Assembly: GCA_003009755.1 (NCBI GenBank)
Contig: PXUB01000010.1
Coordinates: forward strand, 1-18,720
Direction of reading: 5' to 3'
Source: Thermoplasmatales archaeon SW_10_69_26
GTDB lineage: Archaea; Thermoplasmatota; SW-10-69-26
Length of the DNA: 18,720 nt
Both the position numbers and the translations under genes were made by a program. This document shows positions 14,547 through 18,529 of this stretch, in pieces. Each line of letters opens with the position of its first letter. Within the stretch, counting starts at the first letter, position 1. The notes under the pieces were generated by a model that had not been told where the DNA came from, did not search any database, and was given only the letters and a program-made list of their open reading frames with translations.

Positions 14547-14590
14547 AGTTGGGAGAGAGTTGGGAAGCAGTTGGGGAAACCCGTATACCC
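14547..14590 (+). promoter_or_regulatory. ccdA promoter with three phased AGTTGGG repeats
   Basis: AGTTGGG begins at 14547, 14558 and 14569, exactly 11 bp apart, so the copies face the same side of the helix. CGTATACCC follows (14582-14590), a good TATA element whose centre is 26 nt before the GTG of ccdA; the mRNA is probably leaderless. The repeats end 6 bp before the TATA box, the position for an activator. Confidence 0.65.
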
Positions 14591-14611: not shown

Positions 14612-15316
14612 GTGCCCGACCCGGGAACCGGGCTCGTCGCCTTCGGCGCGGGCCTGTTGTCGTTCTTCGCCCCCTGCGTCCTGCCGGTCATCCCCGGCTA
14701 CGTCGCGTTCGTGACGGGCGGGGCCTCCTCCAGCGTGAAGCGCCGGCTGGGCCTCACCCTGGCGTTCGTCAGCGGGTTCTCGCTGGCCTTCGTCGCGATC
14801 GGGCTGCTCATCGGCCTGGTCGGCACCACCGAGGCCTTCCGGTCGGCCGAGACCTGGCTGCAGCGCGTCGGCGGCACCGTCATCATCCTCTTCGGGCTCC
14901 ACATGACCGGCCTGCTGACGCTCTCCTTCCTCCAGCGGGAGGTCCGCTACCAGGGCCAAGCCCCCGAACAGCTGGGCCCCGTCACCGGGGCCGCCTTCCT
15001 CGGCGCCGCCTTCGGCGTCGGCTGGAGCCCCTGCGTGGGCCCGGTCCTGGCCAGCATCCTCGTCCTCGCCGGTCTCGAGGGCGGCGTGCTCGCCGGTGGC
15101 CTGTTGTTGACCGCCTACGCGGCCGGGCTGGCCATCCCGTTCCTGATCCTCGGCGTCACCGCCGACCGCGGCGCCGCCTGGCTGCGCGACCACCAGCGCA
15201 TCGCCCAGGGCGTCGAGATCGTCGGCGGCACCCTGCTCATCGTGCTCGGCATCTTCGTCTTCACCGGCTCGCTCGCCCAGGTGCTCAGCTACGTCGTTCC
15301 CCGCAACCCGCTGTGA
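14612..15316 (+). CDS. ccdA: CcdA-type thiol-disulfide electron carrier in the membrane
   Basis: CcdA moves reducing equivalents from cytoplasmic thioredoxin across the membrane to external thioredoxin-like proteins. The 234-aa product has six helices. Each half carries a conserved cysteine: Cys22 in FFAPCVLPVIPGY and Cys141 in GWSPCVGPVLASIL, the redox pair of the family. Length is normal. The GTG start lies 26 nt after a TATA box and is followed at once by the first helix. The gene for its likely partner, the external CINC thioredoxin, starts 5 nt after the stop. Confidence 0.92.
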   Translation: MPDPGTGLVAFGAGLLSFFAPCVLPVIPGYVAFVTGGASSSVKRRLGLTLAFVSGFSLAFVAIGLLIGLVGTTEAFRSAETWLQRVGGTVIILFGLHMTGLLTLSFLQREVRYQGQAPEQLGPVTGAAFLGAAFGVGWSPCVGPVLASILVLAGLEGGVLAGGLLLTAYAAGLAIPFLILGVTADRGAAWLRDHQRIAQGVEIVGGTLLIVLGIFVFTGSLAQVLSYVVPRNPL

Positions 15317-16432: not shown

Positions 16433-16684
16433 ATGACACGCAACGACGACACGACGACGCGCCTGGCAACCGTGCTCCTGCTCGCCGTGGGCCTGCTGGC
16501 CCTCGGCGGCACCGTGCAAGCCCAGAGCAACGGATCGATGGAGGACAACGGCTCCATGGAGGACAACGGATCGATGGAGAACGAGGGCAGCATGAGCGAG
16601 GAGGAGGACGAGATGCCGACGCCCGGCGTCGGCCTGCTCGTCGCCGGCCTCGCCGGCGCCGCGCTCGTCCGCCACGATCGATGA
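16433..16684 (+). CDS. Repeat-containing surface protein with C-terminal sorting tag
   Basis: The 83-aa product has a signal peptide (to about VQAQ, residue 31), three exact or near-exact NGSMED repeats and an acidic EGSMSEEEDE stretch. It closes with PTPGVGLLVAGLAGAALVRHDR, a short motif, hydrophobic helix and basic end like the PGF-CTERM tag processed by archaeosortases. The mature part is only about 30 residues, rich in Met, Asn, Ser and acidic residues; NGS is also an N-glycosylation sequon, present three times. It starts 1 nt after the thioredoxin gene, so it is cotranscribed and probably coupled. It may be a surface glycopeptide or metal/oxidant-binding peptide; this is inference. Confidence 0.75.
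   Translation: MTRNDDTTTRLATVLLLAVGLLALGGTVQAQSNGSMEDNGSMEDNGSMENEGSMSEEEDEMPTPGVGLLVAGLAGAALVRHDR
16529..16582 (+). repeat. Three tandem 18-bp coding repeats
   Basis: Units at 16529-16546, 16547-16564 and 16565-16582 encode NGSMED, NGSMED and NGSMEN. Units 1 and 3 share GGATCG where unit 2 has GGCTCC, so the middle copy has synonymous changes. Confidence 0.85.
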
Positions 16685-16698
16685 GGGCACCGGGCCGC

Positions 16699-16823
16699 GG
16701 TCCCACCAAGGTCTAAGGACCGATCCCGCCTGCCTTGCTCCGAAGAGGCTAGGGATGGGGAACCTCGAGAGCGTCCTCTGGTACCTTCTTGGTGGGACCA
16801 GAGGCGGGCCCTTGCGGGCCCGC
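16699..16823. promoter_or_regulatory. Inverted repeats around the start of the winged-helix gene
   Basis: GGTCCCACCAAG (16699-16710) is perfectly complementary to CTTGGTGGGACC (16788-16799), enclosing 77 nt that contain the ATG at 16755. GGTC-TAAG-GACC (16710-16721) overlaps the first arm. GCGGGCCC-TTGC-GGGCCCGC (16804-16823) follows the second arm inside the gene. These could be operator sites or an mRNA structure. Confidence 0.45.
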
Positions 16824-17093
16824 ATCCTCCGGCTCCTCCGCGAACGCCCCCTGAACCGCAACCAGCTCGCCAAGAGGCTCGACGTGGACTACAAAACCGT
16901 GCAACATCACCTCGAGGTCATGAACGAGAACAAGGTCGTCCACAGCAGCGGCGACGAGTACGGCGCCGTCTACCTTCCCACGCCCGCCATGCGGGACAGC
17001 TGGGATACCTTCGAGCAGATCGTCGACCAGCTCGACGACCTCGAGGACGACCCCCTCCCCGGAGACGACGACGCCCCAGGAGGTAGCGACTGA
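16755..17093 (+). CDS. Winged-helix (ArsR-like) transcriptional regulator
   Basis: The 112-aa product opens with a short helix and TRGGPLRARILRLLRERPLN, continues with NQLAKRLDVDYKTVQHHLEVM (recognition helix in the YKTVQHHL part), then the wing VVHSSGDEYGAVYLPT. It ends in an acidic tail. This is the common archaeal one-domain winged helix, related to ArsR. No sensor cysteines are present, so the signal is unclear. The GTR-GG segment is encoded by one arm of a 12-bp inverted repeat. Its stop overlaps the ATG of the next membrane protein (TGATG), indicating coupling; such regulator and small membrane protein pairs are frequent in archaea and may form a sensory unit. Confidence 0.85.
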   Translation: MGNLESVLWYLLGGTRGGPLRARILRLLRERPLNRNQLAKRLDVDYKTVQHHLEVMNENKVVHSSGDEYGAVYLPTPAMRDSWDTFEQIVDQLDDLEDDPLPGDDDAPGGSD

Positions 17094-17827: not shown

Positions 17828-18529
17828 ATGGTCGACCTGGCCCTCGTCACCGCCGCTCTCGCCGCCGGCGCGGCCACCTTCTTCAGCCCCTGCAGCGTGG
17901 CCCTCATCCCTGCCTACGCCGGCTTCTTCCTCGGCCTCGACGAGGACCGACCCCGCCCGACGCGCGAAGCCGCCCGCCGCGGCCTGGGGTTCGGGCTCGC
18001 GGCCGCCGCAGGCATCCTGACCCTGTTCGCCGCCGGCGGGCTCGGCCTCTACGCGCTGCGCTCGCTGCTCGACGTCGCCACGCCCCAGCTCGGCGAGGCG
18101 ATCTCGCTGCTCGGCCTGCTGGCCAGCGTCACCGTGTTCGCGCTTGGCACCGCCTACCTGCTCGACCGCGGCCCGCGAGCCACCTCGCCCGTGCGCGCCC
18201 CGCGGAAGCGCTCCCTGCCGGCGATGGCCGCCTTCGGCGTCGTGTTCGCTCTCGGCAGCGTCGGTTGCTCGCTGCCGGTGCTCTTCGGCGTGCTCGTCCA
18301 AGGCCTCGCCCAGGGGGCGCTGGGCACGCTCGTCACCGTGCTCGCCTACGGGCTCGGCCTCGCCGCCCTGATGGCCGTCGTCGGCCTGCTGCTCAGCCTC
18401 GCCCACGACGAGACCCGCCGCCGCATCGAGGCGATCCGCCCCTACGCCCGCCCCGCCAGCGGCCTCGTCCTCGTCGCTGCCGGCATCTACATGTTCGTCT
18501 ACTACGTCACGACCGGCCCGATCGGGTAG
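17828..18529 (+). CDS. Second, divergent CcdA/DsbD-like membrane protein
   Basis: The 233-aa product has six helices and the same plan as CcdA: Cys22 in FFSPCSVALIPAYAGFFLG and Cys147 in GSVGCSLPVLFGVL. The prolines flanking the first cysteine are kept, but the second site reads GCSLP rather than SPC-GP, and the cytoplasmic loop RAPRKRS is basic. It is therefore a different branch from the CcdA at 14612. It probably also shuttles electrons to an external thiol protein, perhaps a different partner. An own TATA-like element overlaps the preceding stop. No thioredoxin gene follows directly in the visible part. Confidence 0.85.
   Translation: MVDLALVTAALAAGAATFFSPCSVALIPAYAGFFLGLDEDRPRPTREAARRGLGFGLAAAAGILTLFAAGGLGLYALRSLLDVATPQLGEAISLLGLLASVTVFALGTAYLLDRGPRATSPVRAPRKRSLPAMAAFGVVFALGSVGCSLPVLFGVLVQGLAQGALGTLVTVLAYGLGLAALMAVVGLLLSLAHDETRRRIEAIRPYARPASGLVLVAAGIYMFVYYVTTGPIG

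What the first reader, a model, noticed from the sequence alone, without database searches (positions are those of the whole stretch)
14547..14590. Three AGTTGGG repeats at exact 11-bp spacing before the ccdA TATA box
Direct reading shows AGTTGGG at 14547, 14558 and 14569, followed 6 bp later by a TATA-like GTATACCC and then the GTG at 26 nt. Three identical heptamers on one face of the helix in front of a TATA box strongly suggest cooperative binding of an activator or redox regulator controlling the CcdA-thioredoxin operon. I know of no described archaeal regulator with this site.
Basis: partly seen in the sequence, partly recalled or inferred. Interest (0 to 1): 0.62.

Follow-up and report, generated by a model that had tools for sequence, protein, structure and literature searches.

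The report
Phased promoter repeats before archaeal ccdA
Three identical 7-letter DNA words, one helical turn apart, sit directly against the core promoter of a thiol-transfer operon in an uncultured archaeon; a two-copy form is found at the same spot in both relatives that carry the operon and nowhere else in the seven genomes compared, so it is probably the docking site of an operon-specific regulator that has not been identified.

Summary
AGTTGGG stands at 14547, 14558 and 14569. It is the only such triple in about 180 kb of sampled non-coding DNA and is not explained by base composition. ccdA looks leaderless: its BRE (GAAAC, 14576-14580) and TATA box (GTATAC, 14583-14588) lie at the spacing from the start codon that is typical of this genome, so the third heptamer abuts the BRE.

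The exact heptamer and the third copy are not conserved. A bipartite core is: YNGGG-N6-YTGGGRAAACC, two GGG words exactly 11 bp apart running into the BRE. It occurs three times in 18.8 Mb (seven genomes of the class), each time at the ccdA promoter of one of the three genomes that have this ccdA. The reversed control gives none.

Best reading: an upstream regulatory site array dedicated to one operon, built like the EarA array of archaellum promoters, with one copy more in this lineage. A winged-helix gene two genes downstream is the best candidate regulator: full-length relatives occur in exactly the three genomes that have ccdA, and it is syntenic in one. Binding, activation and redox control are inferred. 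No wider thiol regulon was found. A separate small-RNA family was noticed in passing.

The parts
14547..14553 (+). First AGTTGGG copy (unit AGTTGGGAGAG)
   Evidence: not conserved in the two orthologous promoters
14558..14564 (+). Second AGTTGGG copy (unit AGTTGGGAAGC); its GGG is the upstream half of the conserved bipartite core
14569..14575 (+). Third AGTTGGG copy, abutting the BRE; its TTGGG is the downstream half of the conserved core
14560..14581 (+). Conserved bipartite element YNGGG-N6-YTGGGRAAACC (TTGGGAAGCAGTTGGGGAAACC)
   Evidence: Exactly three matches in seven class genomes, all at ccdA promoters; reversed control 0
14576..14580 (+). BRE (GAAAC) at -36 to -32 from the start codon
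   Evidence: Coincides with the A-rich peak at -36 to -32 in 206 promoters of the genome; promoter score rank 91 of 415 at the modal offset
14583..14588 (+). TATA box (GTATAC) at -29 to -24
   Evidence: Coincides with the T/A-rich peak at -30 to -24
14612..15316 (+). ccdA (DsbD_TM / DsbD_2 family), GTG start, predicted leaderless
   Evidence: Pfam PF02683 88.7 bits, PF13386
15313..16431 (+). Thioredoxin-like protein with DipZ-type C-terminal domain; overlaps ccdA, same operon
   Evidence: Pfam Thioredoxin_10, AhpC-TSA; 48-52% identical partners follow ccdA in both relatives
16755..17093 (+). Winged-helix (ArsR-like / HVO_A0261_N) protein, candidate regulator
   Evidence: Pfam HTH_5, PF25213; 58% identical syntenic gene in L033; full-length relatives only in the three genomes with ccdA

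Best explanation
The repeats are an upstream site array of the leaderless ccdA-thioredoxin promoter. A DNA-binding protein recognises a GGG-containing word (TTGGG here, CCGGG/CTGGG in relatives) repeated at 11 bp on one face of the helix, the last copy running into the BRE, and from there most likely helps to recruit TFB/TBP. A repressor that covers the BRE is the less likely alternative. The form shared with relatives has two copies; this lineage has three, with identical heptamers. Shown: sequence, spacing, promoter position, conservation of the bipartite core at three ccdA promoters, rarity elsewhere, and synteny and co-occurrence of a winged-helix gene. Inferred: that a protein binds, that copies act cooperatively, that the winged-helix protein is the binder (about 25-30%), and any redox signal.
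For: The triple is non-random. The BRE and TATA box lie at the genome's typical leaderless spacing, which puts the repeats at -65 to -37, where archaeal activators usually bind (PMC5512572). The bipartite core YNGGG-N6-YTGGGRAAACC has 3 matches in 7 genomes (18.8 Mb), all at ccdA promoters, with reversed control 0. The window's ccdA promoter is rank 1 of 415 in similarity to L034 and rank 2 of 415 to L033 around the BRE. A second GGG lies exactly 11 bp upstream in both relatives, against a background of 0.039 per position. Full-length winged-helix relatives occur in the 3 ccdA genomes and in none of the 4 without (Fisher p about 0.03), and the gene is syntenic in L033. EarA precedent: one to four short sites directly upstream of the BRE of a single operon, the number varying between species (PMC10665913, PMC5512572).
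Against: The bipartite pattern was written from the three promoters, so its presence there is by construction; only its absence elsewhere and the shared 11-bp spacing are informative. L033 and L034 resemble each other more than either resembles the window. Upstream of the BRE block the window matches them no better than controls do (6/14 and 5/14). The exact heptamer and third copy are unique to one genome. The ccdA BRE/TATA is better than average (rank 91 of 415), whereas activators often serve weak promoters. In G006 the winged-helix gene is not next to ccdA. One other promoter (the RFC small subunit, C19:98446) also has TGGGAAACC at its BRE.
Confidence: 0.58

Rival explanations
1. Only the BRE-proximal TGGGRAAACC is functional, as an extended core promoter element read by TFB; the upstream copies in this genome are a local tandem duplication of an 11-bp unit without function.
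For: The further copies are absent as heptamers in relatives; the strongest conservation is at the BRE; the RFC small-subunit promoter shares TGGGAAACC; tandem 11-bp units can arise by slippage.
Against: GGG exactly 11 bp upstream is shared by all three ccdA promoters. The three units keep all 7 heptamer positions while all 4 linker positions vary, which is unlike even drift. No similar arrays occur at 415 sampled promoters.
Confidence: 0.27
2. A repressor array: the protein occupies the repeats and the BRE and blocks TFB.
For: The third copy abuts the BRE; ArsR-like winged-helix proteins such as the neighbouring gene are often repressors (general knowledge of the family).
Against: ArsR-type dimers usually bind inverted repeats, and these are direct repeats; most of the array lies upstream of the BRE.
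Confidence: 0.1
3. An RNA element: the repeats are a target or decayed copy of the small-RNA family with CCUCCCA loops noticed in this genome.
For: The family shows the same 11-bp period and similar words, TGGGAGGC on the opposite strand.
Against: Neither strand of the window folds better than shuffles (z +0.7 and +1.5); no flanking stem; pairing energy with the loops is only in the top 1-5% of non-coding 50-mers; the repeats lie upstream of the predicted ccdA transcript.
Confidence: 0.03

Closest known systems
EarA sites of archaellum (fla/arl) promoters in Methanococcus and Thermococcales
   Same: Short repeated sites directly upstream of the BRE of one operon, copy number varying between species (PMC5512572, PMC10665913)
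   Different: Different word (TACATA-type against GGG/AGTTGGG); EarA sites in Thermococcales lie nine nucleotides from the BRE, here the last copy abuts it; different operon; presence of EarA in this genome not tested
PhoB/OmpR/PhoP and SARP binding sites of bacteria
   Same: Heptameric direct repeats with 4-bp spacers, 11-bp period, sometimes three copies (SARP: PMC10972967; PhoB from general knowledge)
   Different: Their DNA-binding domain Trans_reg_C (PF00486) has no match in this genome; bacterial promoters
CcdA-DipZ type thiol-transfer operons
   Same: CcdA followed by a thioredoxin-like protein with DipZ-type C-terminal domain
   Different: Separate genes in an archaeal operon with BRE/TATA promoter; the fused DipZ arrangement is recalled, not tested here

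Membership tests
EarA-type activator array | Repeated short sites immediately upstream of the BRE of one operon | tested here: met
   Repeats at -65 to -37, BRE at -36 to -32; bipartite core only at ccdA promoters
EarA-type activator array | Site sequence TACATA / A(C/G)(C/G)TACA(T/C) | tested here: not met
   Sites are AGTTGGG / YYGGG
EarA-type activator array | EarA homologue encoded | not tested
   No EarA model or sequence was searched
EarA-type activator array | Weak BRE that makes the promoter depend on the activator | tested here: inconclusive
   BRE/TATA score rank 91 of 415 promoters, so not weak by sequence; real dependence not testable here
PhoB/OmpR/SARP site | Heptamer direct repeats at 11-bp period | tested here: met
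PhoB/OmpR/SARP site | Regulator with Trans_reg_C domain (PF00486) in the genome | tested here: not met
   0 matches in own genome, control rings in 10 of 14 genomes; assembly 95% complete
Archaeal leaderless BRE/TATA promoter | A-rich BRE and TATA box at genome-typical distance from the start codon | tested here: met
CCUCCCA-loop small RNA family of this class | Long stem enclosing the repeats and own upstream promoter | tested here: not met
   No stem, z +0.7 / +1.5; no matching promoter on the minus strand by reading

The most novel reading that the evidence does not exclude
A dedicated, previously undescribed archaeal regulator, possibly the linked winged-helix protein, recognises GGG words on one helix face at 11-bp period and controls thiol transfer to the cell exterior in this archaeal class, with site number tuning output between lineages.
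Probability: 0.27. Interest if true: 0.5.

Novelty: new member of a known kind. Interest (0 to 1): 0.4.

Why it matters
Few archaeal activator sites are known. This one is compact, attached to a single operon, conserved in reduced form across three families of an uncultured class and comes with a candidate protein, so it can be tested in vitro. It would also give a first handle on how these archaea control CcdA-type thiol transfer.

Tried and rejected
(1) Thiol regulon in the same genome: AGTTGGG-N4-AGTTGGG occurs only here. The GTTGGG pair with one mismatch gives 23 hits against 19 in the reversed control; besides this locus, the hits inspected were mostly inside genes or not at promoters. 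(2) PhoB/SARP-type regulator: no PF00486 in the genome. (3) RNA hairpin or terminator: no excess folding on either strand. (4) Membership in, or pairing with, the CCUCCCA small-RNA family: stem absent, pairing not exceptional. (5) General habit of phased arrays at promoters of this genome: period 11 not enriched among 415 promoters. (6) G-quadruplex: only three G-runs on the strand, by reading. (7) Conserved TGGGAAACC as a thiol-gene mark: the next best promoter is that of the replication factor C small subunit. (8) Rfam: no match in the window. A first count of triples (19 observed, 15 expected) was spoiled by runs of N and was redone without them.

Full report
OBSERVATION. The three AGTTGGG heptamers are present at 14547, 14558 and 14569 on the + strand, between the stop codon of a NUDIX gene (ends 14526; Pfam NUDIX) and the GTG of ccdA at 14612. 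The units are AGTTGGGAGAG, AGTTGGGAAGC and AGTTGGGGAAA: all seven heptamer positions are identical and all four linker positions vary. The pair AGTTGGG-N4-AGTTGGG occurs only here in the 2.8 Mb assembly; the single heptamer occurs 144 times. In about 180 kb of sampled non-coding DNA this is the only 7-mer triple of period 8-14, and 30 Markov simulations of the same DNA gave none. Simulations of the 85-bp region alone gave one in 20,000.

PROMOTER CONTEXT. Predicted genes in 0.4 Mb of the same genome (206 promoters) show a clear leaderless architecture: an A-rich BRE at -36 to -32 and a T/A-rich TATA box at -30 to -24 relative to the start codon. In ccdA, GAAAC lies at -36 to -32 (14576-14580) and GTATAC at -29 to -24 (14583-14588). 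A motif model over 415 promoters places ccdA at the commonest offset, with a score rank of 91. The start of transcription is therefore predicted at or next to the GTG, the repeats occupy -65 to -37, and the third copy abuts the BRE. This start site is inferred from sequence.

CONSERVATION. Only seven genomes of the class are held, and three have this ccdA (G000 itself, G005 = L033, G006 = L034; 54-58% protein identity). The pair of heptamers is absent from all 59 relatives. The BRE-proximal block is conserved, however: TTGGGGAAACCC (window), TCTGGGGAAACC (L033), TCTGGGAAAACCC (L034). Among 415 promoters of this genome, ccdA is the most similar to L034 and second most similar to L033 in this region. 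A second GGG lies exactly 11 bp upstream of the first in both relatives (background 0.039 per position; 1 of 14 other promoters with GGG before the BRE has it). Upstream of the block, L033 and L034 share 10 of 14 positions (1 and 4 of 415 controls reach that), while the window shares only 5-6, which is no more than controls. The pattern YNGGG-N6-YTGGGRAAACC, written from the three promoters, occurs three times in the seven genomes, each at ccdA, and its reversed control never. So the conserved unit is a bipartite, 11-bp phased element fused to the BRE; the perfect heptamer and the third copy belong to this lineage.

OPERON AND CANDIDATE REGULATOR. ccdA is followed by an overlapping thioredoxin-like gene with a DipZ-type C-terminal domain; the pair is kept in both relatives. 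The winged-helix gene at 16755 and the small membrane protein after it are syntenic in L033 (58% identity) but not next to ccdA in L034. Full-length relatives of the winged-helix protein (E below 1e-20) exist in G000, G005 and G006 and not in the four genomes without ccdA; with seven genomes this is Fisher p of about 0.03 (computed by hand, 1 in 35), and G005 and G006 have more than one copy. The upstream regions of these extra copies do not carry the bipartite element.

MECHANISM. The best reading is an upstream site array for a DNA-binding protein that assists TFB/TBP at the ccdA promoter. The closest precedent is EarA, whose short sites lie in one to four copies directly upstream of the BRE of archaellum promoters, the number differing between species (PMC5512572, PMC10665913). 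The heptamer-plus-4 geometry resembles SARP sites (PMC10972967) and PhoB sites, but that DNA-binding domain is missing from this genome, so the likeness is geometric only. Against an activator, the ccdA BRE and TATA box are not weak. The main rival is that only the BRE-proximal block matters and the further copies are a local duplication.

WHAT IS NOT SUPPORTED. A thiol regulon with AGTTGGG sites, conservation of the heptamer, RNA structure, and a link to the small-RNA family found on the way.

NOTICED ON THE WAY. The search for related words led to an apparent family of small RNA genes in this genome and its relatives: GCCUCCCA repeats at 9- and 11-nt spacing in the loop of a 12-17 bp stem whose sequence differs from copy to copy, in several copies behind a promoter such as GGCAAAGCTTAAG; five copies in this genome, one in the same-family genome G001 and two in G006. 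The loci of the copies in this genome have no match in Rfam. It is not part of the present finding but deserves its own study.

Noticed in passing
G000 C25:24843-24975 (L158/L189), C32:63900-64010 (L160/L192), C43:7375-7530 (L163/L193), C43:69900-70060 (L164/L194), C43:70160-70320 (L165/L195); relatives L191 (G001), L187/L190 (G006): Apparent multi-copy small RNA family: a stem of 12-17 bp whose sequence differs between copies encloses a loop with GCCUCCCA[AG]C[AU]GCCUCCC repeats (anti-Shine-Dalgarno-like CCUCC); several copies lie behind a BRE/TATA such as GGCAAAGCTTAAG and have a pyrimidine-rich 3' end; five copies here, relatives in two further genomes, no Rfam match.
   Followed up: partly
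window 17828-18529: A second CcdA/DsbD-like membrane protein lies downstream of the operon (weakly similar to the L033 CcdA, 31%); no Pfam match over threshold.
   Followed up: no
window 16433-16684: Small secreted-looking protein with repeated NGSMED motifs and a PTPGVG-plus-hydrophobic C-terminus resembling an archaeal PGF-CTERM sorting signal (by reading; no Pfam match), directly after the thioredoxin gene.
   Followed up: no
G000 C19:98446: The promoter of the replication factor C small subunit carries TGGGAAACC at its BRE, much like the ccdA promoters.
   Followed up: partly
L198, L202, L203, L206: The winged-helix gene is followed by a small membrane protein gene at each of these loci too, so the two genes form a recurrent module in G005 and G006.
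   Followed up: partly
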